Assembly (NCBI RefSeq): GCF_024297065.1
Contig: NZ_CP101114.1
Span: 1,702,501-1,766,500, forward strand
Reading direction: 5' to 3'
DNA: 64,000 bases
DNA from: Bartonella harrusi
GTDB taxonomy: Bacteria; Pseudomonadota; Alphaproteobacteria; Rhizobiales; Rhizobiaceae
The position numbers and the translations under genes are program-made. Position 1 is the stretch's first letter. Each line of letters opens with the position of its first letter. Below, piece by piece: positions 23,989-64,000 of this stretch. Under the pieces are notes generated by a model. It ran no database searches. It worked only from the letters and a program-made list of their open reading frames with translations, and had not been told where the DNA came from.

Positions 23989-24120
23989 CGCTCTATCGCA
24001 TACTTTTCTGTTTAAGCGCCATACTCTATCGCATGCTCCTTTATTTAAGTGGCATGCTCTATCGCATGCTCTTTATTTAAGCGGCATGCTCTATCGCATG
24101 CCGGCAGCCTTCAATTCCAC
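23989..24120. repeat. 33-bp tandem repeat containing the tail-hub gene stop codon
   Basis: The core CTCTATCGCA recurs at 23991, 24024, 24057 and 24089, with GCATGC and TTTAAG between. The last copy covers the final codons (Gly-Met-Arg-stop) of the tail hub gene, so the repeats are degenerate duplications of that gene's extreme 3' end. Confidence 0.8.
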
Positions 24121-25566
24121 ATCAAATCCCGTGACATGCGTCCAATTCACGCCTTCAGGAATACGCAATTTAAAGCGATAAAAACGCGCCCTTGCCCGAG
24201 AATGAATTTGCCCTGTATTATAAGAAGGCTTTTTTTCCGGCAACCAAACAGTTTCTTCCTCAAGGGATTGCCGCAAACGCATTCCCACCGATAAAGTGAA
24301 CTCTCCACTATTGACTTGAGGCATAATATTTTTCACCCGTGTGATCATACCATTTGTTTGCCCCATCTCCTGTGATGTCACCACACAAGCCATAGGCTTA
24401 CCAGAAAAGGAACCAAGTCTTCCCTGATGATCAAAGGCACCAAGAATAGGTGCTTCATTTCTCCAAGCTTTACTGTCGAGAGAAAAGGAGAGATCATCAA
24501 TATTTTTTGAAATGCGATCAAGAGCCTCGAGCGTTGTCCCAGCCAAGAAAATGGGCAAAACCATTTTGAGATCTACAGTTGCTTTGGTCCATTTTTGCAA
24601 CCCCCAATCATAAATGAGTAAGATATGTTTTTGCACAGTATCATCGGTATTGATCATCCAATAAACGCGATTATACACCCCATCGATAGCGGCAGAAAGC
24701 GTGTAGAGATTATTACTATTCGATTTTGCTGTCATCGTTCTATCTACTTTTTCAAAGCCGATAGGTATAATCTGTCCCTCATTGGTCATCTGATAAAATC
24801 CGCCCTCATCAGCAAAGAAGGCAAGATCCCCTCGACAAACGATAGATTCGGCATTTTTTGCACCCCGTTTATCGTGTATTTTTTGGAAACTGAAGATAAT
24901 CTTAGAGCCTGGGATAAAAGATCCGGCATAGATAGCGGAGCGCATAAAGATGATTGGATTTGTTGTTTCGGTAGCTCCTTGCACAAAACCGCCATCAGGA
25001 AAGTCTTGATAATCGCAGCTTTTTTTTCCGACGGTCCAAAATTCAGCATCATTCAACCCCGACCAATGAACGCGTCTTGGATGCTCTGTTAATTTCATCA
25101 GACAGACGAAATCCCCCCACACCCGCACGATACCTGCTTGCGGAGGATTCCCGCCCAAATTTCTAAATTTTTTGTCACGATTAAGATCGATCACTTGTGG
25201 TTTATCATTGGCATTAACAGCAATAACATAATCACCAAACAAAGCGAACGACCATGGAGCATCAATATTGGCAAAATAGGGCCTTTCCTTTCGGCTAATA
25301 TCTTTCCACCGCATTGTTGTATTATCGAGAAGGTAGATTTTTTGTGGTGTCCCAACAATAATAGACACCCCATTTTTTGTTTTAACAGCAAGAGCGCCTA
25401 AAATACGATCAGGACAAGGTTCTGAAAGAGGTGTAAAGCTTGGCATAGGGATATAGGACCCATCGGCCGGCAACACATTAATAAGTTCATCAGTAAAGAT
25501 GCCATTGATGTCAGCGACATCAGGTCGATAATCCGCGATTGGGAAAAAAGCCATTGAGACCCCCAT
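24091..25566 (-). CDS. P22 gp10-like tail hub / DNA stabilisation protein
   Basis: 491 residues. The beta-rich sequence with regularly spaced blades (ILGALAVKTKNGVSIIVGTP, WSFALFGDYVIAVN, GDLAFFADEGGFYQMT, LLIYDWGLQKWT) and a C-terminal region FYRFKLRIPEGVNWTHVTGF are characteristic of packaged-DNA stabilisation proteins closing the portal of short-tailed phages. Its position after the head-tail adaptor supports this. The start is 25566 or, four codons later, 25554, which has GGGGG just before it. The gene's 3' end is the seed of a 33-bp repeat. Confidence 0.7.
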   Translation of the reverse strand: MGVSMAFFPIADYRPDVADINGIFTDELINVLPADGSYIPMPSFTPLSEPCPDRILGALAVKTKNGVSIIVGTPQKIYLLDNTTMRWKDISRKERPYFANIDAPWSFALFGDYVIAVNANDKPQVIDLNRDKKFRNLGGNPPQAGIVRVWGDFVCLMKLTEHPRRVHWSGLNDAEFWTVGKKSCDYQDFPDGGFVQGATETTNPIIFMRSAIYAGSFIPGSKIIFSFQKIHDKRGAKNAESIVCRGDLAFFADEGGFYQMTNEGQIIPIGFEKVDRTMTAKSNSNNLYTLSAAIDGVYNRVYWMINTDDTVQKHILLIYDWGLQKWTKATVDLKMVLPIFLAGTTLEALDRISKNIDDLSFSLDSKAWRNEAPILGAFDHQGRLGSFSGKPMACVVTSQEMGQTNGMITRVKNIMPQVNSGEFTLSVGMRLRQSLEEETVWLPEKKPSYNTGQIHSRARARFYRFKLRIPEGVNWTHVTGFDVELKAAGMR

Positions 25567-25570
25567 GAAT

Positions 25571-26042
25571 AGAATATTTCCAGCCCCTTTGCGACGTGAT
25601 GTTTCAAATCACAAAGGCTGTTTTTTTTATCACCAAAAGAGCCAATTCACGAGGCTCTATCATAAAAGCATAACTCTTGAGAGAACAGCATAGAACTTTC
25701 CGCAAAGGAAATGCCCTCAACATCCCGCCATCAATACCCACAACCCTTCACCACCTACCGCCTCCTCAACACAAAGCAATGAAAAGCCTTTTAAAATTGC
25801 ATTGGGAGAATATTTCCACCCCCTTTGCGGCGTGATGTTTCAAATCACCAAGGCTGTTTTTTTTATCACCAAAAGAGCCAATTCACGAGGCTCTATCATA
25901 AAAGCATAACTCTTGAGAGAACAGCATAGAACTTTCCGCAAAGGAAATGCCCTCAACATCCCGCCATCAATACCCACAACCCTTCACCACCTACCGCCTC
26001 CTCAACACAAAGCAATGAAAAGCCTTTTAAAATTGCGTTGGC
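25571..26042. repeat. 236-bp direct tandem duplication (two copies plus start of a third)
   Basis: Copies start at 25571 and 25807, with the same 5' sequence at 26043 inside the adaptor gene; both offsets are exactly 236 bp. The shared start (AGAATATTTCCAGCCCC) is the 3' coding end of the adaptor gene. The array is thus a duplication of that 3' end and its flank, lying between two virion genes. Confidence 0.92.
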
Positions 26043-26725
26043 AGAATATTTCCAGCCCCTTTGCGACGTGATGTTTCAAAGCGCAAAGTTTGCAACTGTT
26101 CTTGATAGTCTCTAAAAGAGACAGCCGCATATTCAGGATCTTTAAGGATATTTTTATAGAGTTCATATTTTGCACGCGCTTTAATAAGATCAAAGGCATG
26201 GATAAACCAAGGATTTTCTTCACGCACCCCTTCATCGCCAAAACGGAAAGATGCGTAAACAAGCCGTATGGTTTCAATCTGTTTTGGTGTTGGAAAGAGT
26301 CCTATTTTTTGATTACGGCAGGTGTAAAAAAGAGGATTTCCCTGTGGAGGTTGTTCTCCATATTGTTGTTGCAATGCCTCAACGGATTTAAAAAGCAACG
26401 GCATTTGTGTTGCAGCATCTCTTCCCAAAAAGACAGCTTCTAAATCTGCTGTTTTTTCAATAAAAACGCCCTCTTCTTTCCCATACCACATTTTACTACT
26501 TTGTGTTTTAAAGGTTGCTTCTCTTTTTTCATTAAAAAAAAGCGGTTCACGTTCACACAAACGCAAAGCGTTCACAATAGAATCCTGAATTTGCGTAGAA
26601 TATTCAGCCGTTGTATCATCAATTTCATCTTGAATAAGAGCCACCATGTGAGAAAAAGTTTTAGAATGGCTCAAATATGTGTGATTAAGATCATTGGCAT
26701 CAGTGGATGGAATGGGCATAAGCAA
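26027..26725 (-). CDS. Head-tail adaptor protein (P22 gp4-like)
   Basis: 232 residues. The N-terminal helix MVALIQDEIDDTTAEYSTQI followed by QDSIVNALRLCEREPLFFNE matches the phage adaptor family that forms the first ring under the portal. The middle (VEALQQQYG, PLFYTCRNQKIGLFPTPKQ) and YASFRFGDEGVREENPW fit the same family. AAAGGA is optimally spaced from TTG 26725; ATG 26719 is the alternative. It lies directly after the capsid gene, as in P22-like gene orders. The 3' end is duplicated downstream in 236-bp units. Confidence 0.75.
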   Translation of the reverse strand: MLMPIPSTDANDLNHTYLSHSKTFSHMVALIQDEIDDTTAEYSTQIQDSIVNALRLCEREPLFFNEKREATFKTQSSKMWYGKEEGVFIEKTADLEAVFLGRDAATQMPLLFKSVEALQQQYGEQPPQGNPLFYTCRNQKIGLFPTPKQIETIRLVYASFRFGDEGVREENPWFIHAFDLIKARAKYELYKNILKDPEYAAVSFRDYQEQLQTLRFETSRRKGAGNILPTQF

Positions 26726-26838
26726 TTATAATCCTTTTATCATGTAGCCTTTTTAATATTATGCTTTTAATTTTCCCCCAACAAAAAGATGTTGGGGGAA
26801 AATTTTTACACACACGCAGCAACTTTAAGGCAACGTCT

Positions 26839-27957
26839 TTAAGCAGGTGTTCCATAGGTTGGGATAACGATAGTACCGAAATCCTGAATACCTTGCTTAC
26901 TTCCTGGCAAATTGTAGCAGGTTTTTTTCATCCCTATAATGGTTTTAGCGGCCACCCCGAACTCACGTTCATAGTCAAACAGCTCTTCGACCAATTTATA
27001 GCGTGTCTCCCCCCGGTCTTTCCCGAAAGCGATGACAGCACTTTGCGCTCCCAAGAGGACAGCACGGCGCACATTTGGCACAGCCTTGTTTGTCGTACCA
27101 GATTCCACACCTTCGGTGACATGTTCGGCTTCACGCAAGACGACACCGTTATACATGCCAAGCGATCCATCATAGAGTGGATTTTTAAGACGGCTTCCAC
27201 TATAGATTGCTTTGGTAATATCCAGCCATTGTCCGTCGTCTGTATTGGTCCGCAATTGGGTTACTTGCGTTGGGTGCAGATAAAGCACATAGACATTTTC
27301 CCCCTCAATACGTACGGGTCTAATTTTGGGATTTGCCAACTTAGCGCGTTCAACAGCTTTATCAATCAAACTGAGATCAAAAAAATCATCCTCTTTCAAA
27401 TCTTCATCTTTTGTTTTTCCATTAGGGCGTATAATGCGTTTATCGGTTGGTGCAGTTGGCGCATTAAATCCATAATGCACAGGTTTGAGTGTAATAGAGC
27501 GTCCCTCAAAGTTAAGAGTTTTTGCTGTATAACCACAGACCTGAATAAAGAACATCATACTCAAACGATCAGCATACCAATCGACCAAGCCATTTTTGGC
27601 TTCGGTACGCAAATCATGGAGAATGCGTTGCTGATCGATTGTTCCTTCATTTTTGACACGCACAGCATGAACGAGTTCATTAATCGCCAAACGGTCATTG
27701 AGAAATTGGAGGGCTTCTTCATTGCCTTCAAGAGCCTGTCCTTCACTCACTCCATCTCCAAGTAACTGTACGCGCAAACCAAAGCTAATAGCATCTCCAC
27801 TTGCTTTGGTTGTTTCATCTTTTAATTGAACGATACTATTGGAATCATTGCCAATCAATGGTGCAATAGGAATTGCTTTTGAAACTTCCTGGTTCAATAG
27901 TTTAGACCATGTACGCACTGCCATTGGGTCATTAATTCCGATATAAGTTACGGTCAT
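26839..27957 (-). CDS. Major capsid protein, N4 gp56-like
   Basis: 372 residues from ATG 27957, chosen for its AGAGGAT ribosome-binding site and because a terminator hairpin lies inside the longer reading frame (to 27999). The start MTVTYIGINDPMAVRTWSKL, the E-loop-like region (SGDAISFGLRVQLLGDGVSE) and FEGRSITLKPVHYGF agree with N4-type HK97-fold coat proteins. The stretches YVLYLHPTQVTQLRT and VRRAVLLGAQSAVIAFGKD point the same way. It would form the shell of the particle. A likely separate transcript is suggested by the upstream terminator. Confidence 0.85.
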   Translation of the reverse strand: MTVTYIGINDPMAVRTWSKLLNQEVSKAIPIAPLIGNDSNSIVQLKDETTKASGDAISFGLRVQLLGDGVSEGQALEGNEEALQFLNDRLAINELVHAVRVKNEGTIDQQRILHDLRTEAKNGLVDWYADRLSMMFFIQVCGYTAKTLNFEGRSITLKPVHYGFNAPTAPTDKRIIRPNGKTKDEDLKEDDFFDLSLIDKAVERAKLANPKIRPVRIEGENVYVLYLHPTQVTQLRTNTDDGQWLDITKAIYSGSRLKNPLYDGSLGMYNGVVLREAEHVTEGVESGTTNKAVPNVRRAVLLGAQSAVIAFGKDRGETRYKLVEELFDYEREFGVAAKTIIGMKKTCYNLPGSKQGIQDFGTIVIPTYGTPA

Positions 27958-27981
27958 TTTATCCTCTAAAAGTTTGTTGAC

Positions 27982-28008
27982 ATAAAAAAAGCCGGGCATT
28001 TACCGGCT
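27982..28008 (-). terminator. Intrinsic terminator upstream of the capsid gene
   Basis: On the minus strand AGCCGG, a 7-base loop and CCGGCT are followed by a run of seven T. Stem arms are 28003-28008 and 27990-27995. It would end transcripts from the scaffold gene and partly insulate the capsid gene. Confidence 0.75.
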
Positions 28009-28505
28009 ATTGAAATTCCACATTTCTGATTTTCAGAGGGTGGATTTTTTGTTGCATATTTTGTGTGCTATTTGTTGAAAGTCTACTTCTCCCCCTTTGC
28101 GAGATCTTCTCCACGCGCTGTTGCATTCAGAAAAAATCTCCGCCTCATCCCGTTTGTGTTTTTTCACCGCTATCGGCATCAAGAGTTCCCATTCTTATCC
28201 AGGTTCTCTTCACAACGACCACTTTAGAGCTCCCCCTCCTCCGAGTAAAAAAAAGCAAAAAAGGTTTAAAAAGTAACACTTCTCTTTTTTCGTATAGAAG
28301 GATAGCCCCATTCGTTTTATGATTGATTTTACATGATGCTCTTTTTAAATACCGCGCCCTTACTTCATAACGAACGCTTGTCCCTTTGAGAGATTTTCTC
28401 CATGCCTTTGCGCATTCACGCTTCCCCTCATTGCATTTGACCTTTTTTACAAACATCTGCTTCAAGAGCCCTCATTTCATCTAAGCATCCTCTTCCCATT
28501 CTGTT
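28009..28505. other. Intergenic between scaffold and capsid genes
   Basis: About 500 bp. A minus-strand frame at 28145-28465 exists but has basic, low-quality composition and no ribosome-binding site, so it is not called. No repeat was found; possible site of a lost small gene. Confidence 0.4.
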
Positions 28506-29345
28506 TTAGCGCTCTCCTCCCCCCATTAAGCGGTTAAACGCGGCTTTATTTTTGGGATCACTCACCCAATGACTAAATTCTACCTCCGACATTTTGTCGA
28601 GCATATCCAAAGAAATGGGACCACTTGGGGTCAAACCATTATAAGCAGCAAGTGTGCGTGCAGAATTATGTCTTTCTTGCAAATTTTCACCAAGATTATT
28701 TGCAGCACTTGTATAGCCAATTTTTTGTGCAATAGAGTAGATCACTTCACCAGGATTTTGCTTTTTTTTCGCACAATCTTGTACGATTTGCTTCAATTCA
28801 TTGCCAATCAAAACATCGACAACATTTGGATCGGCCATTTCAGGATAGAGCGAAGCATAAGCAGCCAACTGCTTAGCCCGCGTATCATAAATAAAATCGG
28901 CTGCTTCATCAAAATCATGATATTTCTGTTTAACACCGGCAACAGAGTGCTGATAGAAATTATGCAACTGCTCTGCTTCAGGAACATTGGCAGAAAATTG
29001 TTCAGGAGCAGGGGATTGTTCAGAGAGCAGCGCTCCTTGTTTATAGAGAGCTTTTCCTAACCATTGTATATAGCCCATAAAATCTTCTTTTGGATCTGGT
29101 GGTGTCTCACCGGCAAGTACCTTTTGAACATCTTTTGCCAATGTTTCTTCTTGTGTATCTTCTTGTGTCTTTTCTTGCAATGACCGTTGTTGTTGATATC
29201 CATTTTGATGCATTTGGAAATTTTCTTCCAGAGTTTTTGCCTTTTCTTCTGCTCCAACTTCAGTGTTTTCTTGCTGTCCAACTCCTGAAAACCCGCCCTG
29301 TTGCAATTGCTTTTGTTCTGCTGGTGTTAAATGTTCTTGATCCAT
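28506..29345 (-). CDS. Scaffolding protein-like virion assembly protein
   Basis: 279 residues from ATG 29345, preceded by AAAGG; the longer frame to 29411 is unlikely. The N-terminal ~100 residues are Gln/Glu-rich and disordered. The middle and C-terminus are helical and acidic (HDFDEAADFIYDTRAKQLAAYASLYPEMADP, split by Pro). The position between portal and capsid genes, the composition and the size are those of podovirus scaffolding proteins, which direct procapsid assembly and leave the shell. No sequence motif is decisive. Confidence 0.65.
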   Translation of the reverse strand: MDQEHLTPAEQKQLQQGGFSGVGQQENTEVGAEEKAKTLEENFQMHQNGYQQQRSLQEKTQEDTQEETLAKDVQKVLAGETPPDPKEDFMGYIQWLGKALYKQGALLSEQSPAPEQFSANVPEAEQLHNFYQHSVAGVKQKYHDFDEAADFIYDTRAKQLAAYASLYPEMADPNVVDVLIGNELKQIVQDCAKKKQNPGEVIYSIAQKIGYTSAANNLGENLQERHNSARTLAAYNGLTPSGPISLDMLDKMSEVEFSHWVSDPKNKAAFNRLMGGGER

Positions 29346-29418
29346 ATTTTTAGCCTTTTCTTTTTCAAACAATAAAATGCTCTCTTTTCGAAGAGCGCCA
29401 TTTTTCTTCACACATGTA

Positions 29419-30550
29419 CTCTTTACGAAACAAATCGCACCAACGGTTCCAGTCCCTCATACCCCCAGCAGCTCCAGCATGGGCCCGTCCTCGCACAAGA
29501 GCGCTTTGCTCCTCTAGGTTTTGCATGTGCAATTTGGAGGCTCTCTTTTCAAAGACAGCCCTTTACTCTTGCCCATGTGCTCTTTGCAAAAGAGTCCGCA
29601 CCAACGCCTCCATTCCCTCATGCCCCCAGCAGCTCCAGCATGAACCCCTCGCTTGCACAAGAGCGCTTTGCTTCTCTAGGTTTTGCATGTGCAATTTGGA
29701 GGCTCTCTTTTCAAAGACAGCCCTTTACTCTTGCCCATGTGCTCTTTGCAAAAGAGTCCGCACCAACGGTTCCATTCCCTCATGCCCCCAGCAGCTCCAG
29801 CATGAACCCCTCGCTTGTACAAGAGCGCTTTGCTTCTCTAGGTTTTGTATGTGCAATTTGGAGGCTCTCTTTTCAAAGACAGCCCTTTACTCTTGCCCAT
29901 GTGCTCTTTGCAAAAGAGTCCGCACCAACGGTTCCATTCCCTCATACCCCCAGCAGCTCCAGCATGGGCCCGTCCTCGCACAAGAGCGCTTTGCTCCTCT
30001 AGGTTTTGCATGTGCAATTTGGAGGCTCTCTTTTCAAAGACAGCCCTTTACTCTTGCCCATGTGCTCTTTGCAAAAGAGTCCGCACCAACGCCTCCATTC
30101 CCTCATGCCCCCAGCAGCTCCAGCATGAACCCCTCGCTTGCACAAGAGCGCTTTGCTCCTCTAGGTTTTGCATGTGCAATTTGGAGGCTCTCTTTTCAAA
30201 GACAGCCCTTTACTCTTGCCCATGCGCTCTTTGCAAAAGAGTCCGCACCAACGCCTCCATTCCCTCATGCCCCCAGCAGCTCCAGCATGAACCCCTCGTT
30301 TGCACAAGAGCGCTTTGCTTCTCTAGGTTTTGTATGTGCAATTTGGAGGCTCTCTTTTCAAAGACAGCCCTTTACTCTTGCCCATGCGCTCTTTGCAAAA
30401 GAGTCAGCACCAACGCCTCCATTCCCTCATGCCCCCAGCAGCTCCAGCATGAACCCCTCGTTTGCACAAGAGCGCTTTGCTTCTCTAGGTTTTGTATGTG
30501 CAATTTGGAGGCTCTCTTTTCAAAGACAGCCCTTTACTCTTGCCCATGTG
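29419..30550. repeat. 162-bp tandem repeat, seven copies, derived from the portal gene 3' end
   Basis: The landmark CTCTTTGCAAAAGAG (or its first variant) occurs at 29419, 29580, 29742, 29904, 30065, 30227, 30389 and 30551. Spacings are 162 bp, or 161 where a GGGCCCGTCCTCGC variant loses a base. The copy at 30551 is the coding 3' end of the portal gene, whose stop codon lies at 30534-30536. The long plus-strand ORFs across this array are repeat artefacts. Confidence 0.95.
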
Positions 30551-32381
30551 CTCTTTGCAAAAGAGCCTGTACCATACTTTCGACATCAACATTTGCAGGC
30601 ATTCCAGCTCCAGCATCGGCGCCCTCTAGTGAAGCCGCATTTTGTTCCTCTTGACTTTGCGTTTGCGTCTTGATGGCGATTTTATGGATCAACGATGCTG
30701 GCAAAGGTGAATAGCGTAACAGATCGAGCATAATCTCTGGTGTTGCGAAATTTTGCATCAAAGGAAGCAATTGCATAATAATTGCGAATGTCCGCTCTTT
30801 TTCATTAAGACTTGTCGGTGCATCATCAACGACAATATCATATTCCAAACTTGTGATCATTTCTCGTGTTAGCGGCACATATTGAGCGTTTTCCTCACCA
30901 GCAATACGCACCAACCGCCCATCAGAGAGATAATTTTGAATAAGATAGAGGATAATTTTTCCCTGTCGTTGGCGATAACGCCGTAAACCATCAAAGAAAG
31001 AAGCCAACAAATTGAGTGACGATTGCCTACGTTGTTCTTCAAGAATTCCTGGTTGGTTGACCGCCCTTGTTCCAATAAATTCAGAAGACAATCCAGTCAC
31101 TTGTTCGAGTGCACTCTTTGCTTCATTAAACAGCTGGAAGAATCCTTGTGGGAATTGTGCCACCGGTTTAGGCTGGATTCTTCCCCCCGAGACCGCACCA
31201 CTTTTCAACCACGTAATACTATCGGCACGCGCCCAGCTTTCCACGGCCTGACGATCATCATCGAAAGCATCGCGTTCAGCCATAATTCCGCCTTTTGACT
31301 GACTATTAAGCAAATGCATCACTTGACTAAAATATTTATTTGCCCAGCGTTGTGGATCTTTTGTAGGTTTTACAATCCCATAAAATTGCCGGCTTAACTT
31401 ATCGAACGTTCCGGTAATACATTCCCACCCCAATTGATGAGGTGGCACCAAAGGCTTATCGGGTGCTTCGAGCAATTTTCGCCCCAAAAAGGCACGTTTT
31501 ACAACTTTTCTCGTCAATCGTGTTGCTTGAATGCCAGGAAAATCTTTGCTTAGTTTTTGGAACTCTTGTTCTGTATAATCGGTAAATTTTCCACTTAATG
31601 GATCAAGGACTTTATAAACGACCTCGCGTTCAAACCAGCGGCATTCAGCCAATGTGACCATTTTAGGCTGTTGATAACTGCTCTCCTCCTCGCTCTCTCC
31701 ACAATAGCTTTGCGTATTGCCATTGGCATTTTGATGGAAAAATGTATGATTTTTCACCCAATCGGCATTCAGATCACTCCAATGGACATGAGGGAACATT
31801 TCCCTCGCGACATCCAAAGGCTTTTCATCAATATACCACAAGTGCTGTGCATCAATGAGATTTGGCTTCACCGCACTTGCATCCCAGACCATTTTCATGG
31901 GATCTAATCTTGCAATGACGGGTTTTCCTTGCGGCTCTTCTTCATAATCAAGGCGCGTATCTGTCCAACCCATTCCGCAAATGATAGCATCTTGAAAGGC
32001 ATCAGAATCCTCATACTCTCCCCCAGCCTCATCACGAAACCATTCGGCTGCCCCGGTGAGGATCTGGTTGGCAAAAGCAGCACCTTCTTGCCGTGGAATA
32101 AATTGCACTTGTCGTTTGTTATTGCGCTCTGTACCAATCACCGCATTAATCAAAGGTGCAATCCGGTTAAAGGTCATGACGGGTCTGTTTTGTTCACGCA
32201 ACACGGCAAGATCTTGTTCATTCCATTGGCGACCATTATAAAAATCATAGTCTTCTTGGGCATTTTTTCGCCATTTTTCCACATGGGCAATATCATCATG
32301 ATACCAGCCCACGAGTTTTTTAAAGAGCGCCTGATTTTCAAGGCTCTCCAAGGGATCAAAAGAATTGGTAGAAATATTCAT
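30534..32381 (-). CDS. Portal protein, P22-like
   Basis: 615 residues, normal for short-tailed phage portals. Typical features are WYHDDIAHVEKWRKNAQEDY and DFYNGRQWNEQDLAVL at the N-terminus, RPVMTFNRIAPLINAVIGTE, a central WTDTRLDYEEEPQGKPVI, and the wing/stem region with TGLSSEFIGTRAVNQPGILE and RQSSLNLLASFFDGLRRYR. The dodecameric portal sits at one capsid vertex, docks the terminase and passes DNA. Its ATG follows the terL stop without a gap. The last ~27 codons and the 3' flank are tandemly repeated seven times downstream. Confidence 0.88.
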   Translation of the reverse strand: MNISTNSFDPLESLENQALFKKLVGWYHDDIAHVEKWRKNAQEDYDFYNGRQWNEQDLAVLREQNRPVMTFNRIAPLINAVIGTERNNKRQVQFIPRQEGAAFANQILTGAAEWFRDEAGGEYEDSDAFQDAIICGMGWTDTRLDYEEEPQGKPVIARLDPMKMVWDASAVKPNLIDAQHLWYIDEKPLDVAREMFPHVHWSDLNADWVKNHTFFHQNANGNTQSYCGESEEESSYQQPKMVTLAECRWFEREVVYKVLDPLSGKFTDYTEQEFQKLSKDFPGIQATRLTRKVVKRAFLGRKLLEAPDKPLVPPHQLGWECITGTFDKLSRQFYGIVKPTKDPQRWANKYFSQVMHLLNSQSKGGIMAERDAFDDDRQAVESWARADSITWLKSGAVSGGRIQPKPVAQFPQGFFQLFNEAKSALEQVTGLSSEFIGTRAVNQPGILEEQRRQSSLNLLASFFDGLRRYRQRQGKIILYLIQNYLSDGRLVRIAGEENAQYVPLTREMITSLEYDIVVDDAPTSLNEKERTFAIIMQLLPLMQNFATPEIMLDLLRYSPLPASLIHKIAIKTQTQSQEEQNAASLEGADAGAGMPANVDVESMVQALLQRAHGQE

Positions 32382-33707
32382 TTAAAAAGCCATCCATGAA
32401 GTTTGAGAATGGTGAAACGAGCGATAAACACTTTTTTTTGGTCTGCTCTGTGGTTGTTCATAAGCCACACACATGAGTCCGAAGCTATCGGCCCCATGGC
32501 TTGCCCAATCATGTTCAGCACCCAATCCGATATTGCGTTGTTCATCACGCCTTTCGTGATACCAAGCGAGCGCTTTTCGCCCCGCGTGCGTTGTTTCGCG
32601 ATTAAACCATATGGCGGGAAACAATCGCCTTACGGCTTCGATACGCATTTTGACAGCCCCTACCCCTTGATTAGGAATCACTTTGGTTTGAAACCCAGCC
32701 TGTTGGAGGGCACTTTCAAAACTCACATTATAAACCCGATCTTTGGTAGCGCCATCATGGGGCAAAACCATCAGAGCCTTATCATATCCCCTTTGAAACA
32801 CCCATCCCACATGCTCTGAGAGGGGTTGTCCCTGCGCTTCATAATAATCAAGGACACGGATTTCCCGCCCAACAAATTGCGCCACCCATAGTGCGGTAGC
32901 ATCTGCCTTTGCCCCTGTTCCGCCAATATCCCAAAAGATTTTGACCTGCATGAGTGGATCACGTGGAACAGTAGTAATCCGCCCCTCCTGTTCGGCTTCC
33001 AGCAGTGCTTTTTGATAATAAGCCCCTTGCACAGCTTGCATATATCCGCCTTCCCAAATATGATGATACTGCTCAGGTCGTTGTGCTAAATCGGCTTTTC
33101 GGTCTCGGTTTAATTTTTCAGGAAATTGAGGATTATCCCGCCAATTAATTTCAGCACCTTTGATATTGGGATCATCAACATTTCGGAAACGTTTTTCCAC
33201 GGGGGCGTTTTCTCGGCACGGGTTCCATGTCACCCATAATTCGGCATTCCAATCTTTTCCTTCTTCGCGCAAAGTTGGAATGAGGGTTTGCCAAGCGGTT
33301 TCCGTCACTGGTTCCGCCTCATCCACCCAACAAAGGAACACCCGCCCCATTGATTTAATACTTGCAATATTACGATCAAGACCAGCAAAGACATAAACGA
33401 TACGTCCATCTTTTGACTTAATATATTTATCGCCAATTTCATAATACTCTTGCAAAAAAGGATAGGTTTCTATAGCCCGTTTAATTTCTTCCAATGAGCT
33501 TTCATTGAGTGAATTTTGAAATTGCCGCGCACAAAGAATAATCCCGCGTTCTCCAGCCTTCCCATGCCGATATCCAACCACAGCAGACATGAGAGCAAAG
33601 GAACGTGTTTTTCCAGACCCGCGTCCTCCCCAAGCAGCCCGCACATCAGCTTTTCCAGTAAAAACAGGAAGCAACTTTGGAATAAGAGCAATTTGCGCCG
33701 TTGTCAT
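32382..33707 (-). CDS. Terminase large subunit
   Basis: 441 residues. The ATPase domain has Walker A GGRGSGKT (27-34) and Walker B FLCWVDEAEP (124-133; D129/E130). The RNase H-like nuclease domain begins with VKIFWDIGGTGAKADATALW and has acidic residues at the expected place (WDIGG). GAGGTTTC precedes ATG 33707. It cuts and pumps DNA into procapsids. In a gene transfer agent the same enzyme would package host DNA by headful. The gene lies between terS (with its repeat array) and portal. Confidence 0.92.
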   Translation of the reverse strand: MTTAQIALIPKLLPVFTGKADVRAAWGGRGSGKTRSFALMSAVVGYRHGKAGERGIILCARQFQNSLNESSLEEIKRAIETYPFLQEYYEIGDKYIKSKDGRIVYVFAGLDRNIASIKSMGRVFLCWVDEAEPVTETAWQTLIPTLREEGKDWNAELWVTWNPCRENAPVEKRFRNVDDPNIKGAEINWRDNPQFPEKLNRDRKADLAQRPEQYHHIWEGGYMQAVQGAYYQKALLEAEQEGRITTVPRDPLMQVKIFWDIGGTGAKADATALWVAQFVGREIRVLDYYEAQGQPLSEHVGWVFQRGYDKALMVLPHDGATKDRVYNVSFESALQQAGFQTKVIPNQGVGAVKMRIEAVRRLFPAIWFNRETTHAGRKALAWYHERRDEQRNIGLGAEHDWASHGADSFGLMCVAYEQPQSRPKKSVYRSFHHSQTSWMAF

Positions 33708-33749
33708 GAAACCTCAAACACTACAAATCTCAGATACTAGCAATCTCAA

Positions 33750-34942
33750 ACATACACCTCGCACGGGCATCCTCAAACATCACGCGCCATCACCCCACAG
33801 CGCTCTTCAAACACCCCAATTCCTCACCACGGCACGCCCTCACACCCAAGCAACTGCCTCATGAATCTTCGTCCAGCACCCCATCTTTTGTAATCATATC
33901 TTTTTTTACCGCATCTTTTGTAACCATTGGCACAATCTCAACACGCGAAATGGCTTATTACCCCCAGCCTCTCCAGCAGCGAGCATACAGCAATCATTGC
34001 CAACACCACCACGAAGCCTCTCATCAGCACAAACTTCCACATGGGCATCCTCAAACATCACGCGCCATCACCCTACAGGGCTCTTCAAACACCCCAATTC
34101 CTCATCACGGCACACCCTCACACACAAGCAACCGCCTCATGAATCTTCGTCCAGCACCCCATCTTTTGCACTCACCGGCACAATCTCAACACGCAAAACG
34201 GCTTATTACCCCCATCCTCTCTAGTAGCGAGCATACAGCCATCATTGCCAACACCACCACGAAGCCTCTCATCAGCACAAACTTTCACACGGGCGCTCTC
34301 AAACATCACGCGCCATCACCCCACAGCGCTCTTCAAACACCCCAATTCCTCACCACGGCACGCCCTCACACCCAAGCAACTGCCTCATGAATCTTCGTCC
34401 AGCACCCCATCTTTCGCAATCATATCTTTTGTAACCGCATCTTTTGTAACCATTGGCACAATCTCAACACGCAAAACGGCTTATTACCCCCATCCTCTCC
34501 AGCAGCGAGCAGCATACAGCCATCATTGCCAACACCACCACGAAGCCTCTCATCAGCACAAACTTCCACATGGGCATCCTCAAACATCACGCGCCATCAC
34601 CCCACAGCGCTCTCCAAAAATCTCAATTCCTCACCACGGCCCCCTCACACCCAGGCAATCGCCTCATGAATCTTCGTCCAGCACCCCATCTTTCGCAATC
34701 ATATCTTTTGTAACCGCATCTTTTGTAACCATTGGCACAATCTCAACACGCAAAACGGCTTATTACCCCCATCCTCTCCAGCAGCGAGCAGCATACAGCC
34801 ATCATTGCCAACACCACCACGAAGCCTCTCATCAGCACAAACTTCCACATGAGCATCCTCAAACATCACGCGCCATCACCCCACAGCGCTCTTCAAACAC
34901 CCCAATTCCTCACCACGGCCCCCTCACACCTAGGCAACCACC
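33750..34942. repeat. Tandem repeat (248-279 bp units) of the terS 3' end, four copies
   Basis: The landmark CTCATGAATCTTCGTC, containing the terS stop codon, occurs at 33858, 34136, 34384, 34663 and 34942; the last one is the real gene end. Spacings are 278, 248, 279 and 279. Units contain decayed codons for the IVPxVxKDxVxKDxxLDEDS C-terminus and a common 3' flank. All plus-strand ORFs here are artefacts. Confidence 0.93.
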
Positions 34943-35287
34943 TCATGAATCTTCGTCCAGCACCCCATCTTTCGCAATCATATCTTTTGTAACCGCATCT
35001 TTTGCAACCACCGGCACAATTTCAACACGCGAAATGGCTTTAACCTCACCCCCAGCCTCTCCAGTAACTTGCAAAGGCAAAACCTTTGCAAGAAGCGAAA
35101 AAAAAGGCACAGGGTTATTGAGGGCATGATATTGGAGATAAGAGACCAGACCATCCTCACCATAGTGATATCCGGCTTGTTCAGCAGCTGTAAGAAGGGC
35201 TTCATTAAAGCGCTTTGTTGTTTTATTCAAAGCGGCTTTTTTCCGCCCCCTTCGGCGTAAAGGAAGAGAATGTTCATTTGCCATCAT
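34943..35287 (-). CDS. Terminase small subunit-like protein
   Basis: 114 residues. A basic N-terminus (LPLRRRGRKKAALNKTT) leads to RFNEALLTAAEQAG and GLVSYLQYHALNNPVPFFSL, then LLAKVLPLQV. This pattern (AAE..G...GLV.YL......P..F..LL.KVLP) marks small proteins encoded just before TerL in alphaproteobacterial phages, taken as TerS. AAGGAACATC precedes ATG 35287. The C-terminus VVAKDAVTKDMIAKDGVLDE is itself made of short KD repeats and is the seed of the array downstream. A second, frameshifted copy is at 37618-37949. Confidence 0.75.
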   Translation of the reverse strand: MMANEHSLPLRRRGRKKAALNKTTKRFNEALLTAAEQAGYHYGEDGLVSYLQYHALNNPVPFFSLLAKVLPLQVTGEAGGEVKAISRVEIVPVVAKDAVTKDMIAKDGVLDEDS

Positions 35288-42851: not shown

Positions 42852-43136
42852 TTTTTTTCCTTACCCTTAAAGACCACCACCACACCTTAACGCTCCAAAC
42901 CACCCTCCTCACGGCCAATCAAACCGTACAAACACCACAAACGAAGCAGCCTGAAGAAGAGCGAACGTCTTTTATTCGTCTTTAAATGCATATGGGTTCT
43001 CACACACCCCATAGCAAGAGGGAAAAGGAACACTTTCACATTTTTCAATAAAACCGGTGCTTTTCTACTCTGTACCTCTGTGTCCCTCACTCACCCCACC
43101 GCAAGACACACCTTTTCAAGCATCCCCATGAAATCA
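42852..43136. other. Upstream region of clpB
   Basis: No gene recognised. It should contain the clpB promoter on the minus strand; no convincing heat-shock consensus was picked out by eye. Confidence 0.4.
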
Positions 43137-43540: not shown

Positions 43541-43544
43541 AGAA

Positions 43545-52007: not shown

Positions 52008-52244
52008 TTATTCTTCTTCATCGCTCATTTGCGGTGGAGGAGGCAGGATATAAGCCCCCGAAAGCCATCGATTAAGATCAATAGCTTGACATCGTGTTGA
52101 ACAGAATGGATAGGCATTTTGTTGTGCCATTTGCCCACAAATTGGACAAGGATGCGCAGGACGAATTGCAGATGCTGTTTTTTTTAAGTTGTTTCTTTTC
52201 AATTTGTCTGTATCTTTATTGTTTGTTTGGACCTTTTGCTTCAT
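52008..52244 (-). CDS. yacG: DNA gyrase inhibitor YacG
   Basis: 78 residues with the YacG zinc finger: C33-x2-C36 (CPICG) and C48-x3-C52 (CSTRC), then IDLNRWLSGAYILPP typical of the family. YacG binds GyrB and blocks DNA binding. The N-terminal ~25 residues are Lys/Asn-rich. It is the last gene of an infA-maf-yacG group on the minus strand, ~90 bp after maf. The 3' half is tandemly duplicated downstream four times. Confidence 0.9.
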   Translation of the reverse strand: MKQKVQTNNKDTDKLKRNNLKKTASAIRPAHPCPICGQMAQQNAYPFCSTRCQAIDLNRWLSGAYILPPPPQMSDEEE

Positions 52245-58281: not shown

Positions 58282-60342
58282 ATGACACAATCCTCTCACA
58301 CCCCCTCCCCATCCGCCACAACACCCCCATCACCCGCAGCTGCGACACCCATCCCATCCGCCACAACGCCCCCATCCCCCGCAGCTACGACACCCATCCC
58401 ATCCGCCACAACACCCCCATCCCCCGCAGCTACAACACCCATCCCATCCGCCACAACACCCCCATCACCCGCAGCTACAACACCCATCCCATCCGCCACA
58501 ACGCCCCCATCCCCCGCAGCTGCGACACCCATCCCATCCGCCACAACACCCCCATCACCCGCAGCTGCGACACCCATCCCATCCGCCACAACACCCCCAT
58601 CCCCCGCAGCTGCGACACCCATCCCATCCGCCACAACGCCCCCATCCCCCGCAGCTGCGACACCCATCCCATCCGCCACAACGCCCCCATCCCCCGCAGC
58701 TGCGACACCCATCCCATCCGCCACAACACCCCCATCACCCGCAGCTACAACACCCATCCCATCCGCCACAACACCCCCATCACCCGCAGCTACAACACCC
58801 CCATCACCCGCAGCTACAACACCCCCATCACCCGCAGCTACAACACCCATCCCATCCGCCACAACGCCCCCATCCCCCGCAGCTACGACACCCATCCCAT
58901 CCGCCACAACACCCCCATCCCCCGCAGCTACAACACCCATCCTATCCGCCACAACACCCCCATCCCCCGCAGCTGCGACACCCATCCCATCCGCCACAAC
59001 GCCCCCATCCCCCGCAGCTGCGACACCCATCCCATCCGCCACAATACCCCCATCCCCCGCAGCTACAACACCCATCCCATCCGCCACAACACCCCCATCA
59101 CCCGCAGCTACAACACCCATCCCATCCGCCACAACGCCCCCATCACCCACAGCTGCGACACCCATCCTATCCGCCACAACACCCCCATCCCCCGCAGCTA
59201 CAACACCCATCCTATCCGCCACAACACCCCCCTCCCCCGCAACAACCAGTGTATCCCCATCGTTGCCTTCAAACAGGGTCATCGGTTTTATAGGCGGGGG
59301 GCAATTAGCACGCATGTTAGCGATAGCGGCAGCAGAACTAGGTTTTCGAACGGTTGTTTTTTGCCCTGAAGAGGATTGCCCAGCGGCACAAACAGCGAAT
59401 GATCATATTGTTGCGTTCTATGATGACACTTCGGCACTCGATCGTTTTATTTCTCTGTGTGATATTGTGACTTATGAGTTTGAAAATCTTTCTCTTCAAA
59501 CGGTTCAATATGTAGAGAACGCCAAAAGTGTTTTTCCCTCTTCTAAAGCCTTGGAGATTACACAAGATCGACTTTTCGAGAAGCAATTTTTGCAAAAGCA
59601 AGGGATAGGCACGGCATCATGGTATGCAGTTGATGATTCCTCTTCTCTTCTTTCAGGGCTTTCCGCATTAAAGGGGCGTGGTCTTTTAAAGACACGTCGT
59701 TTTGGTTACGATGGAAAAAATCAGATGATGCTGGACCACCCGTCTGAGCAAACTCTTGAAAAGATCTTTACAACATTTCAGGGACATCCTTTAATTTTAG
59801 AAGAAATTATTCCTTTTTTATCGGAAATTTCGGTTATCTCGGCACGTACGAAACAAGGAGACCATATTTTTTATGATTGCCCTGAAAATCAGCACAGAAA
59901 CGGTATTCTTCACAAATCATTTGTTCCATCGCACGTACCGCTTAACGTCCAAAATGCAGCCCAAGAAATAAGCGTAGCCGTGATGGAGGCACTGGATTAT
60001 GTTGGGGTTCTTTGCATTGAATTTTTTGTTCTCATAGATGGCAGTCTTTTAGTCAATGAATTGGCACCTCGTGTTCATAACTCTGGACACTGGACACAAA
60101 AGGCGTGTGTAACATCACAGTTTGAACAGCATATCCGTGCTATTTGCGGACTCCCTCTAAGCAGCACATACCGGCATAGCAATTGTCAAATGACCAATCT
60201 TCTTGGCAACAATCTCCATGAAATCAAATATTTTCTCACGCAAGAACACACATCGGTGCATTTATACGGCAAAAGCTCTATTCAGCCCCTCCGCAAAATG
60301 GGGCATGTGATTCAATTAACGGGGCCAGCCAGCCAATCTTGA
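58282..60342 (+). CDS. purK: PurK with a ~310-residue N-terminal Pro/Thr/Ala/Ser repeat expansion
   Basis: 686 residues. The enzymatic part is ordinary and complete from residue 332: VIGFIGGGQLARMLAIAAAE, then FCPEEDCPA, YEFENL, the ATP-grasp core (TRRFGYDGKNQ, LILEEIIPF, EISVISART) and NELAPRVHNSGHWT, ~355 residues. It converts AIR, ATP and bicarbonate to N5-CAIR. Between the native-looking start MTQSSHTPSP and SVSPSLPSNR are ~21 units of a 15-residue repeat (TPIPSATTPPSPAAT). Since 45 bp is a multiple of three and no stop or shift occurs in 930 bp, the extension is probably translated. ATG 58282 follows the purE stop by one base. No internal start with a ribosome-binding site is obvious near residue 332. 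Confidence 0.93.
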   Translation: MTQSSHTPSPSATTPPSPAAATPIPSATTPPSPAATTPIPSATTPPSPAATTPIPSATTPPSPAATTPIPSATTPPSPAAATPIPSATTPPSPAAATPIPSATTPPSPAAATPIPSATTPPSPAAATPIPSATTPPSPAAATPIPSATTPPSPAATTPIPSATTPPSPAATTPPSPAATTPPSPAATTPIPSATTPPSPAATTPIPSATTPPSPAATTPILSATTPPSPAAATPIPSATTPPSPAAATPIPSATIPPSPAATTPIPSATTPPSPAATTPIPSATTPPSPTAATPILSATTPPSPAATTPILSATTPPSPATTSVSPSLPSNRVIGFIGGGQLARMLAIAAAELGFRTVVFCPEEDCPAAQTANDHIVAFYDDTSALDRFISLCDIVTYEFENLSLQTVQYVENAKSVFPSSKALEITQDRLFEKQFLQKQGIGTASWYAVDDSSSLLSGLSALKGRGLLKTRRFGYDGKNQMMLDHPSEQTLEKIFTTFQGHPLILEEIIPFLSEISVISARTKQGDHIFYDCPENQHRNGILHKSFVPSHVPLNVQNAAQEISVAVMEALDYVGVLCIEFFVLIDGSLLVNELAPRVHNSGHWTQKACVTSQFEQHIRAICGLPLSSTYRHSNCQMTNLLGNNLHEIKYFLTQEHTSVHLYGKSSIQPLRKMGHVIQLTGPASQS
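58311..59240. repeat. 45-bp in-frame tandem repeat inside purK, about 21 units
   Basis: ATCCCATCCGCCACAACACC and CCCATCACCCGCAGCTACAAC alternate as one 45-bp unit. Variants are limited to ACA/ACG, TCA/TCC and GCG/ACA codons. Two units near 58790-58850 are shortened to 24 bp (8 codons), also in frame. Long antisense frames across it are artefacts. Confidence 0.96.
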
Positions 60343-60654: not shown

Positions 60655-61806
60655 CCATGCCTTCCACACCGACCTCCTCCCGCAAAACTGCCTTGCCAAC
60701 AACACCTCTTCTCCCCATAAGCCAACAAGCAATTTACCCCCTCTCACACACACCACCCTTCCTCATCCTCCCCTTAACGCTCTTAAAGCTTCCACCCAAC
60801 ACCACCATATTTTGTTTACGCATCTTCTCTCAGACCTTGCCTATCTCCTCTTTGCAAAGAACAGCCCTGTTTTACAACAAACCTCCTCTCCAACACTTCC
60901 GCAACCAACATACGGATACCCCGCACCCATGCTCCCTCACCTCCTCTCAAAACGCCCCACCAAAAACCTCCCCCCAAATGCCTCACCCCGCAAACCCCAA
61001 CTCATGCCTTCCACACCGACCTCCTCCCGCAAAACTGCCTTGCCAACAACACCTCTTCTCCCCATAAGCCAACAAGCAATTTACCCCTCTCACACGCCTC
61101 ACCTTTCTCACACACACCACCCTTCCTCATCCTCCCCTTAACGCTCTTAAAGCTTCCACCCAACACCACCATATTTTGTTTACGCATCTTCTCTCAGACC
61201 TTGCCTATCTCCTCTTTGCAAAGAACGGCCCTGTTTTACAACAAACCTCCTCTCCAACACTTCCGCAACCAACATACGGATACCCCGCACCCATGCTCCC
61301 TCACCTCCTCTCAAAACGCCCCACCAAAAACCTCCCCCCAAATGCCTCACCCCGCAAACCCCAACTCATGCCTTCCACACCGACCTCCTCCCGCAAAACT
61401 GCCTTGCCAACAACACCTCTTCTCCCCATAAGCCAACAAGCAATTTACCCCTCTCACACGCCTCACCTTTCTCACACACACCACCCTTCCTCATCCTCCC
61501 CTTAACGCTCTTAAAGCTTCCACCCAACACCACCATATTTTGTTTACGCATCTTCTCTCAGACCTTGCCTATCTCCTCTTTGCAAAGAACAGCCCTGTTT
61601 TACAACAAACCTCCTCTCCAACACTTCCGCAACCAACATACGGATACCCCGCACCCATGCTCCCTCACCTCCTCTCAAAACGCCCCACCAAAAACCTCCC
61701 CCCAAATGCCTCACCCCGCAAACCCCAACTCATGCCTTCCACACCGACCTCCTCCCGCAAAACTGCCTTGCCAACAACACCTCTTCTCCCCATAAGCCAA
61801 CAAGCA
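60655..61806. repeat. 364-bp tandem repeat, 3.2 copies
   Basis: ATGCCTTCCACACCGACCTC occurs at ~60656, 61004, 61368 and 61732; the first interval is ~16 bp shorter, the others are 364. Units are C-rich on the plus strand and contain several overlapping ORFs on both strands, none with a domain. Unlike the other long arrays, no flanking gene 3' end was recognised as its source. Confidence 0.9.
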
Positions 61807-62178
61807 ATTGATAAGAGATCCGTGCTTGACAAAAAGAAGACTTTTTGCTAAAGGGGAGTGTAGTTTTTTGCAATTTTCGCTTGTTTATTGTGTTTATCAA
61901 GGATGTAAATGCGTACCTGTGAGGGTGCTTTTTCATTTTGTGATCACAATGGAGAAGTGTATAACTTGGTATTATAGTGTAACCACAACAGAGGGCACAA
62001 TATTAATTACGACCTCGTTATTGGGGGACATTTGAGAGAGTTGACCCGTAATCTGAGCTAGTAACTTGAGCAAACCAGTTTTTTGTGGAACTCAATTAAA
62101 GTGTCAAAAGAATGGTAAAGTGTCGAGAGAGTGGTTCATTATGGTATTGCGTTACATGAATGTTAGACGGTGAGTATT
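61807..62178. other. Intergenic before rpmJ
   Basis: No gene recognised. Base composition returns to normal after the C-rich repeats. The rpmJ promoter should be in the last ~150 bp. Confidence 0.4.
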
Positions 62179-62312: not shown

Positions 62313-62345
62313 GTGCCTGCTTTTCGCGGGCATGGAAGCTTTTTG
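62313..62345 (+). terminator. Terminator of rpmJ
   Basis: TGCCTGC and GCGGGCA pair (one G-U) around TTTTC, followed by a T-rich CTTTTTG a few bases later. Confidence 0.6.
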
Positions 62346-62421
62346 TCTTTCAAAAGTCATTTTTGGATGATTGCGGTTTGTAAATCTGCTGCGTGGTGCT
62401 TTTCTCGTGAGAGAGCTTTTT

Positions 62422-63210
62422 ATGCATTTTTTTCTTTTTTTAAAAGCTTTACGATTACGGGGTTATATTTTCCAACGTGATTTTTTACGTTGTTTTGCAA
62501 ATTTTCTTTTTGCTTTTTTCAGCAGTTTCTTTTTTATTTCCACTGGATATGGACAAAATCCTCCTTCCCTTCCTGAAGATCGTCCCTCTCCGCAATTGCT
62601 TTTGCCGTTAGAAGAATTGATCCCCAATAGTCCTCCCTCAGCAACATCTGACTCTGACACATCTGCGATTCTTTTAGAAGATTTTGATTTAAACACCTCT
62701 TCCCCTGTTGACAGAGCAAAACAGCGCAAAGAGAGGGAAATCTCACGTTTACTGAAAGAATTGAAATTTTGTGCGAATGTTCAAGAAGCGAAGAAGATCA
62801 GCGGGCGGCTTCAACGTTTATGGTCACAATCGGGCAGTGAAACGATTGACCTTTTGATGTCATGGGCTGAAAATGCGGTCAATGAAGACGATTATGGTCT
62901 TGCCCTTGATTACATTGACAATGTCCTTGCCCTTGAGCCCGCTTATGCTGAAGCTTGGGTAAGACGCGCATGGGTTCATATTCAACTGAGTGATTTTAAA
63001 CTTGCCATGCTTGATCTTAACCATGCTCTGGAACATGAGCCACGCAATTACAGTGCGTTTTTTGAGCTTGGCGTTATCATGGAAGCAACGCAACGTCCCA
63101 AACTTGCTCTCAAGGCCTACGAAAAAGCACTTGAAGTGTATCCACAAATGCGAAAGCTTCAAGAGCGCCTTGAGGTTCTGTTAGATGAGCAGACCCCACA
63201 AGCACTTTAG
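62422..63210 (+). CDS. Exported tetratricopeptide repeat protein
   Basis: 262 residues from ATG 62422, with GAGAGAG before it; the upstream in-frame start at 62371 is less likely. A signal peptide with a long hydrophobic core (FLRCFANFLFAFFSSFFFIS) ends near TGYGQ. A Pro-rich linker and a helical region (RAKQRKEREISRLLKELKFC) precede at least three TPR motifs (about residues 140-255), including DYGLALDYIDNVLALEPAYA, FKLAMLDLNHALEHEPRNYS and PKLALKAYEKALEVYPQM. Probably a periplasmic scaffold. The last TPR and the 3' flank are duplicated downstream at least twice. Confidence 0.85.
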   Translation: MHFFLFLKALRLRGYIFQRDFLRCFANFLFAFFSSFFFISTGYGQNPPSLPEDRPSPQLLLPLEELIPNSPPSATSDSDTSAILLEDFDLNTSSPVDRAKQRKEREISRLLKELKFCANVQEAKKISGRLQRLWSQSGSETIDLLMSWAENAVNEDDYGLALDYIDNVLALEPAYAEAWVRRAWVHIQLSDFKLAMLDLNHALEHEPRNYSAFFELGVIMEATQRPKLALKAYEKALEVYPQMRKLQERLEVLLDEQTPQAL

Positions 63211-64000
63211 ACTAAACTACCCTCTTTAAACTTAGCCAAATCCTTTACACTTCCCTTTCAAAACATTGCCAATTGGGCGCTCCCTCACTGATAGGAAAGC
63301 GCAGAAAAACATGGGCTCCTATCCACACACGTGATCAACCCATGATATTTACCCTTGCAAACCACACGTGATCTTAACCATGCTCTGGAACAAGAGCCAC
63401 GCAATGAACCGTGCATTTTTTGCACTTGGCGTTATCATGGAAGCAACGCAACGTCCCAAACTTGCTCTCAAGGTCTATGAAAAAGCACTTGAAGTGTATC
63501 CACAAATGCGAAAGCTTCAAGAACGCCTTGAGGTTCTGTTAGATGAGCAGACCCCACAAGCACTTTAGGCTAAACTACCCTCTTTAAACTTAGCCAAATC
63601 CTTTACACTTCCCTTTCAAAACATTGCCAATTGGGCGCTCCCCCACTGATAGGAAAGCGCAGAAAAACATGGGCTCCTATCCACGTGCAACCCAACTTAC
63701 CACACGTACCCTTGCAAACCACACGTGATCTTAACCATACCCGACCTCCACCCCAGAACAAGAGCCACGCAATGAACCGTGCATTTTTTGCACTTGGCGT
63801 TATCATGGAAGCAACGCAACGTCCCAAACTTGCTCTCAAGGTCTATGAAAAAGCACTTGAAGTGTATCCACAAATGCGAAAGCTTCAAGAACGCCTTGAG
63901 GTTCTGTTAGATGAGCAGACCCCACAAGCACTTTAGACTAAACTACCCTCTTTAAACTTAGCCAAATCCTTTACACTTCCCTTTCAAAACATTGCCAATT
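63211..64000. repeat. Tandem copies (358 and 368 bp) of the TPR gene 3' end, running off the window
   Basis: CACAAGCACTTTAG with the TPR gene stop occurs at 63197, 63555 and 63923. Each copy has codons for the last ~60 residues (FALGVIMEATQRPKLALKVY and on) preceded by a short stretch that no longer fits the gene. The flank CCAAATCCTTTACACTTCCC is repeated, and the third flank is still running at base 64000, so more copies may follow. Confidence 0.93.

What the first reader, a model, noticed from the sequence alone, without database searches (positions are those of the whole stretch)
23989..64000. Recurrent tandem duplication of gene 3' ends at seven or more independent loci
Seen in the sequence: the last codons, stop and 3' flank of an intact gene are repeated downstream for the tail hub (33 bp), adaptor (236 bp x2), portal (162 bp x7), terS (248-279 bp x4, and again beside its pseudogene), yacG (~245 bp x4) and TPR gene (~360 bp, at least 2). 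The DUF4167 gene shows the same in decayed form (8.7-15.6 kb). Units differ completely in sequence, so one repeat family did not spread; a process acts repeatedly at gene ends. The intact copy is always promoter-proximal. Selection alone may explain this, because a 3'-inclusive duplication leaves the gene whole. Alternatively the process may be linked to terminators or transcription-replication encounters, or the copies may act as transcription buffers.
Basis: partly seen in the sequence, partly recalled or inferred. Interest (0 to 1): 0.85.

Follow-up and report, generated by a model that had tools for sequence, protein, structure and literature searches.

The report
Tandem-duplication hotspot around phage-derived origin
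In this Bartonella chromosome, short stretches of DNA between genes have been copied head-to-tail again and again, mostly within about 200 thousand bases of a borrowed phage replication origin that over-copies that part of the genome, which suggests that over-copying leaves lasting duplication scars.

Summary
The arrays are real.

The strong pattern is regional. The window holds the Bartonella gene transfer agent (BaGTA) genes and ends 11 kb from the run-off replication (ROR) module. In this genome 42 non-genic long-unit arrays lie in 440 sampled kb near ROR and 2 in 765 kb elsewhere (p=1.6e-16). Local direct repeats fill 51% of noncoding DNA nearest ROR, falling stepwise to 6%; inverted repeats reach 0-6% without such a decline. 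Four more genomes gave 13 near, 0 far, but two of them only 2 and 1; G009 gave none in one stretch.

Best reading: over-replication from the domesticated phage origin makes tandem duplications, and selection leaves those outside genes. Association shown; cause inferred.

The parts
23990..24101 (.). 33-bp tandem array over the 3' end of the 'tail hub' gene (24091-25566, -)
25571..26088 (.). 236-bp array filling the gap between the 'adaptor' gene 3' end (26027-26725, -) and the next gene start (25566)
29379..30565 (.). 162-bp array; enters the portal 3' end by 32 bases and the called start of gene 28506-29411 by 33 bases
33908..35040 (.). 248/279-bp arrays between terL and the 'terS' gene, entering its 3' end
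36915..37378 (.). 249-bp array on the terS pseudogene side
43136..43541 (.). 157-bp array upstream of the ClpB-type gene (40230-42851, -); no gene 3' end found in it
50940..52164 (.). 245-bp array over the yacG 3' end (stop codon 52008-52010, -)
58308..59241 (+). 45-bp array, in frame at the 5' end of the purK ORF (58282-60342)
60742..61809 (.). 364-bp array in the purK-TPR gene interval, 400 bases after the purK stop
63012..64000 (.). array over the TPR gene 3' end; continues 897 bases past the window
8692..15774 (.). diverged direct repeats around the DUF4167 gene (15591-16349, -)
21394..35287 (-). BaGTA gene block (tail fibre-like, DNA ejection-like, structural, major head, portal, TerL, terS-position genes)
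   Evidence: order and sizes compared with PMC3610622 Table 2

Best explanation
The arrays are scars of over-replication. A domesticated phage replication module 11-19 kb right of the window (YqaJ exonuclease, DUF1376 initiator-like gene, Toprim/DnaB primase-helicase) fires repeatedly and amplifies the surrounding few hundred kb. Nested or colliding forks break or switch template and leave short head-to-tail duplications (157-754 bp here); slippage, unequal exchange and conversion then expand and homogenise them. BaGTA particles, which carry DNA in proportion to this amplification, may pass them to surviving recipients. Selection removes duplications that break genes, so survivors lie between genes or across gene ends; a mild 3' excess would follow because a 5' duplication disturbs promoter and start. 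Shown here: the concentration around the module, its stepwise decline, direct rather than inverted repeats, mostly unrelated units in different species. From papers: amplification and transfer profile. Inferred: that over-replication is the cause, and each molecular step.
For: Non-genic arrays (unit 100-799 bp): 42 in 440 kb v 2 in 765 kb, p=1.6e-16; 37 v 1 after dropping six gene-family or island arrays; same at other thresholds, 46 v 3, 37 v 1, 26 v 1. Direct repeats fill 51.2, 43.3, 27.1, 14.5, 5.9% of noncoding DNA with distance; inverted repeats 0, 1.0, 5.9, 0.9, 1.4%. Spearman rho of direct-repeat share with distance -0.58, -0.82, -0.66, -0.52 in G000, G017, G022, G013 (p 1e-6 to 0.02). 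Four other genomes: non-genic arrays near 6, 4, 2, 1, far 0, 0, 0, 0. Among home-genome stretches over 25% noncoding: medians 0.285 near (16) v 0.005 far (12), p=0.002. Arrays in the same gene interval of different species mostly lack detectable unit similarity. ROR module identified by exonuclease 75-86% identical at the ROR place in 8 genomes, and by Pfam. Particle DNA peaks at this module, about 30-fold over cellular DNA, and declines both ways in B. grahamii (PMC2697382 section 16).
Against: Correlation only. G016 shows 0% noncoding direct repeats within 50 kb of ROR and its one near non-genic array is 83 kb away beside long repeat-bearing ORFs; G009 shows 0% in its one stretch. G013 is weak: 2 v 0 arrays (p=0.25), 10.6 v 5.4%. 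G022 arrays 4 v 0, p=0.09. The 220-kb limit was chosen after seeing the home genome. In G000 the right side is flat (2.0-1.75 per 10 kb) to +120 kb, then 0: a plateau and an edge rather than a smooth decline there. Inverted repeats are borderline higher near ROR (p=0.054). Short-unit arrays (10-30 bp) are also about 3 times denser near ROR, so the effect is not confined to long units. PMC6899734 (passages) says induced cells lyse, so scars need survivors or recipients. PMC3483213 (passages) found only a minor rise in synonymous change inside the region.
Confidence: 0.6

Rival explanations
1. Recombination rather than re-replication: BaGTA delivers fragments whose abundance falls with distance from ROR, and repeated unequal integration in recipients expands arrays there.
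For: Transfer frequency follows distance to ROR (PMC6899734 passages); 14-kb particle DNA over-represents the zone. Would give the same profile.
Against: Needs existing repeats to pair unequally; three of eight near-identical zone pairs have 0-2 bp at the junction. Arrays centre nearer ROR than BaGTA in G000, G017, G022 and G004 but not G013, which does not discriminate transfer from replication.
Confidence: 0.18
2. Tolerance: the zone is gene-poor and plastic, so duplications that arise everywhere survive there.
For: Noncoding fraction rises from 0.215 far to 0.67 nearest ROR in G000.
Against: Excess remains per noncoding base and among stretches over 25% noncoding. The mirror arm at 0-400 kb has noncoding direct repeats almost only in L007 (3202 of 3238 bases). 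Low gene density could itself be a result.
Confidence: 0.12
3. One reading: a process tied to gene 3' ends (terminators, transcription-replication encounters).
For: Six arrays in the window cover a gene 3' end; 17 v 6 overall, p=0.035.
Against: 15 v 6 (p=0.078), 18 of 28 (p=0.18), 22/47 v 13/33 (p=0.65), 7 of 22; 5' cases in the ROR helicase and purK; cannot explain the regional concentration.
Confidence: 0.05
4. Assembly error in a deeply covered zone.
For: Read depth should be high there; no reads were available.
Against: Copies differ by substitutions (median identity 96%); the pattern recurs in separate assemblies such as G017 and G022.
Confidence: 0.02

Closest known systems
Bartonella run-off replication zone / chromosomal high plasticity zone with BaGTA (PMC2697382, PMC3610622, PMC6899734)
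   Same: Same place and gene order: BaGTA, core spacer, ROR module; gene-poor, plastic zone.
   Different: The papers describe amplification, transfer and gene content; in the passages and sections seen intergenic tandem arrays around ROR are not described.
Over-replication ('replification') as a source of instability and tandem duplication (PMC5053440, passages)
   Same: Proposes that local over-replication causes breaks and may be turned into tandem duplications.
   Different: A theoretical essay; it notes that bacteria generally lack end joining and treats escape replication as lethal. Here the units are short and the evidence is genomic.
Bartonella VNTR loci used for typing (PMC3428342, passages)
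   Same: Tandem copy number varies between and within hosts; the one intergenic locus (BHV-A) is called the least stable.
   Different: Its position relative to ROR was not found in what I read.
Brt-trp RNA/regulator units (PMC5387305, passages)
   Same: Four zone arrays in G000 and one in G017 belong to a similar-sequence group with XRE-like ORFs.
   Different: A gene family; not the other arrays. That these are Brt-trp units was not tested; the XRE label is by eye.

Membership tests
BaGTA locus | portal, TerL, major head and a 330-bp-type gene in the published order | tested here: met
   PHROGs portal, TerL, major head; sizes and order against PMC3610622 Table 2
BaGTA locus | particles carrying host DNA | not testable with these tools
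   needs experiment
ROR module | phage exonuclease, initiator-like gene and helicase near BaGTA | tested here: met
   YqaJ at C2:1777433-1777855, DUF1376 and Toprim/DnaB genes; G004 match falls inside published ROR exo coordinates
ROR module | amplification in this strain | not testable with these tools
   no reads available
ROR-linked duplication hotspot | array excess near ROR in the home genome | tested here: met
   42/440 kb v 2/765 kb
ROR-linked duplication hotspot | same excess in every ROR-bearing genome | tested here: not met
   clear in G017 and G022, weak in G013, not near ROR in G016; G009 0% in 20 kb
ROR-linked duplication hotspot | absent from a genome without ROR exonuclease | tested here: inconclusive
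   G021: no array in 6 stretches, 3.5% noncoding direct repeats in the maf region; small sample
Gene 3'-end process | edges in 3' ends more often than in 5' ends | tested here: inconclusive
   15 v 6 (p=0.078), 17 v 6 (p=0.035), 22/47 v 13/33 (p=0.65)
Single spreading repeat family | units share sequence | tested here: not met
   14 similar pairs among 44 units; top 12-mers in 4 of 44

The most novel reading that the evidence does not exclude
A domesticated phage origin turns a zone of several hundred kb into a structural-mutation hotspot: over-replication continually makes short tandem duplications, inflates intergenic DNA around the origin, and the linked gene transfer agent exports the products. 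The array profile would then be a sequence-only record of run-off replication activity that can be read in complete Bartonella genomes.
Probability: 0.5. Interest if true: 0.88.

Novelty: new variant of a known kind. Interest (0 to 1): 0.75.

Why it matters
It would tie a known, experimentally accessible over-replication system to a measurable mutational footprint, and make the question whether local over-replication produces tandem duplications in bacteria directly testable: remove the origin and count duplications. It could help explain why this zone is so gene-poor and plastic, and it warns that array copy numbers may change at rates that depend on chromosomal place.

Tried and rejected
A 3'-end-specific process: tested three ways, at most a mild bias. 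A common motif: top 8-mers are A/T-rich (12 of 44 units), top 12-mers in 4 of 44. RNA elements: 5 sources scanned (132.5 kb), only a tRNA and 6S RNA, neither in an array. G003 as a ROR-without-GTA test: its exonuclease near maf is 27% identical to the ROR one, like the other phage types (27-34%), so dropped. Gap sizes between collinear genes, G000 against others: larger in 45 of 66 v G016 (p=4e-7), 42 of 71 v G022 (p=2e-4), 36 of 65 v G013 (p=0.003), 25 of 59 v G017 (p=0.94), 2 of 5 v G021 (no result). Identity and copy number v distance: rho -0.30 (p=0.05), -0.23 (p=0.15). Named maf loci: 5 of 14 non-bee Bartonella loci have arrays of period 60 or more, 0 of 3 bee-type loci of 20 kb (L056, L058, L059; L057 is 3 kb), but contigs often end there, so not used as a test; non-Bartonella: 2 arrays of period 100 or more in 62 loci, 958 kb. 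Dropped before the non-genic counts: units of 800 bp or more and arrays inside a called gene (listed). Papers were searched and opened as passages or single sections; none seen reports these arrays around ROR; most subscription papers are not held.
Full report
What is there. The window is C2:1702501-1766500 of a 2,235,184-bp contig; its maf gene is closest to named Bartonella loci. One search lists the arrays; one search counts gene-tail copies: 'tail hub' 4 (11-base tail), 'adaptor' 2, portal 7, 'terS' 4 plus 2 on the pseudogene side, yacG 5, TPR gene 5 (running past the window), and diverged repeats at the DUF4167 gene.

Where it is. The phage-like block matches the Bartonella gene transfer agent, BaGTA (against PMC3610622 Table 2, section 9). 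The run-off replication (ROR) module lies 11-19 kb beyond the window: YqaJ exonuclease, DUF1376 initiator-like gene, Toprim/DnaB gene. The exonuclease is 75-86% identical to those at the ROR place in 8 other genomes, and in G004 the match falls inside the published B. australis ROR exonuclease coordinates. PMC2697382 section 16 reports about 30-fold more signal in particle DNA than in cellular DNA at this module in B. grahamii, declining both ways.

Home-genome test. I took 40 evenly spaced stretches and 20 more, ran TRF with periods up to 2000 and called genes with a hexamer model. Non-genic arrays with 100-799-bp units: 42 in 440 kb within 220 kb of the ROR exonuclease, 2 in 765 kb elsewhere (p=1.6e-16); the 220-kb limit was set after seeing the data. 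Without six gene-family or island arrays it is 37 and 1. Of the 7 arrays listed beyond 220 kb, 4 lie inside long ORFs, 1 has a gene-sized unit and 2 are the non-genic ones. Density per 10 kb: 0.67, 0.25, 1.0, 0.75, 1.5, 2.5 coming in from -220 kb; 2.0, 2.0, 1.75, 1.75 out to +120 kb; then 0 to +220 kb. Direct repeats fill 51.2, 43.3, 27.1, 14.5 and 5.9% of noncoding DNA in classes up to 25, 60, 120, 220 and beyond 220 kb; inverted repeats 0, 1.0, 5.9, 0.9 and 1.4%, near v far p=0.054.

Other genomes. For G017, G022, G013 and G016 I chose 10 stretches around ROR and 10 elsewhere before looking at their sequence; the 220-kb rule moves one G022 stretch to 'near'. Non-genic arrays: near 6, 4, 2, 1; far 0, 0, 0, 0; single-genome p 0.016, 0.09, 0.25, 0.5. 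From these figures 13 of 13 near, with 820 of 1,600 kb near, has a chance of about 2e-4 (my arithmetic). One of the G017 arrays is of the XRE-like group, and the G016 one lies 83 kb from ROR beside long repeat-bearing ORFs. Direct-repeat share within 50 / 50-160 / over 160 kb: 25.1/12.8/2.0, 16.3/7.2/0.3, 10.6/5.9/5.4, 0/0.3/6.1%. One 20-kb stretch at ROR in four more genomes: 11.9 (G004), 14.7 (G010), 6.8 (G023), 0% (G009); TRF found an array in G004 alone. G021, without a YqaJ match, had no array in 6 stretches and 3.5% direct repeats near maf. So: clear in three genomes, weak in one, not seen close to ROR in G016 and G009.

Independence. Arrays recur in the same gene interval of different species: purK-TPR (G000, G022, G013), terL-terS (G000, G022, B. 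callosciuri L044), the YmdB/EPSP synthase genes (G000, G022, B. rochalimae L054), beside maf (G000, L048), beside the ROR helicase (G000, G017). Unit similarity across species was found in 6 pairs: 4 in the XRE-like group, 2 over 73-79 bp at terS. Either the arrays arose separately or their units turn over fast.

The 3' question. With the hexamer gene set, 15 edges enter 3' ends and 6 enter 5' ends among 56 arrays (p=0.078); home genome alone 12 v 5 (p=0.14); 18 of 28 co-directional arrays are nearer the 3' side (p=0.18). With yacG and TPR added by hand, 17 v 6, p=0.035. A homology-based set shows no bias. The ROR primase-helicase has two truncated 5' copies in front of the intact gene, in an array that starts 2 bases after the initiator stop codon: a 5' duplication with the intact copy last.

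Confounders. Among stretches over 25% noncoding the median direct-repeat share is 0.285 near (16) and 0.005 far (12), p=0.002. GC skew changes sign between 1.12 and 1.18 Mb and between 2.06 and 2.11 Mb, taken as terminus and origin; the mirror arm (0-400 kb) has 3238 of 37877 noncoding bases in direct repeats, 3202 of them in L007. Short-unit arrays (10-30 bp) are also denser near ROR, 2.95 v 0.97 per 10 kb noncoding in G000, and 1.6 to 3.2 times in the other three genomes counted.

Mechanism. Eight zone arrays are near-identical pairs (97-100%, at most 2.4 copies): three have 0-2 bp at the junction, four a spacer of 12-54 bp, one a 66-bp partial third copy (some shown). This fits template switching or joining at broken forks followed by homogenisation; it does not prove it. 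PMC5053440 (passages) argues that over-replication makes breaks and may make tandem duplications. PMC6899734 (passages) says transfer follows distance to ROR and that induced cells lyse, so lasting scars need survivors of weak firing, or recipients. PMC3483213 (passages) considered a raised mutation rate in the region and saw only a minor rise in synonymous change.

Verdict. A real regional hotspot of tandem duplication around the ROR origin, not found reported in the searches named under Tried and rejected.

Noticed in passing
window 58282-60342: The purK ORF carries an N-terminal extension of about 330 residues made of a 15-residue repeat (PSATTPPSPAAATPI type) before the PurK domains.
   Followed up: partly
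window 7075-7711 and 56571-57185: Two very regular short-unit arrays: 13 bp x 49 (99% matches) and 14 bp x 43.9 (100%).
   Followed up: no
G000 C2 about 1.56-1.91 Mb: Dispersed 12-mers such as AGCACTAAAAGC (18 in zone noncoding DNA outside arrays, 0 far) and CGAGGGCGCTCG (14 and 0) appear zone-specific.
   Followed up: no
L034:1536-2923: An array inside the ROR module itself, between the initiator-like gene and the primase-helicase, with two truncated helicase 5' copies.
   Followed up: yes
window 43545-43859: Fragment matching the RepC N-terminal domain (PF03428) in the spacer between BaGTA and ROR.
   Followed up: no
window 49658-50128: Integrase-type Arm DNA-binding domain fragment (PF13356).
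   Followed up: no
L138 and L034 (C2 1766501-1800000): GC skew is strongest here of all home-genome stretches (-0.28 and -0.23).
   Followed up: no
L140:7916-10822, L141:4083-5194: Arrays of XRE-like ORFs, related in sequence between sites and to one G017 array.
   Followed up: partly
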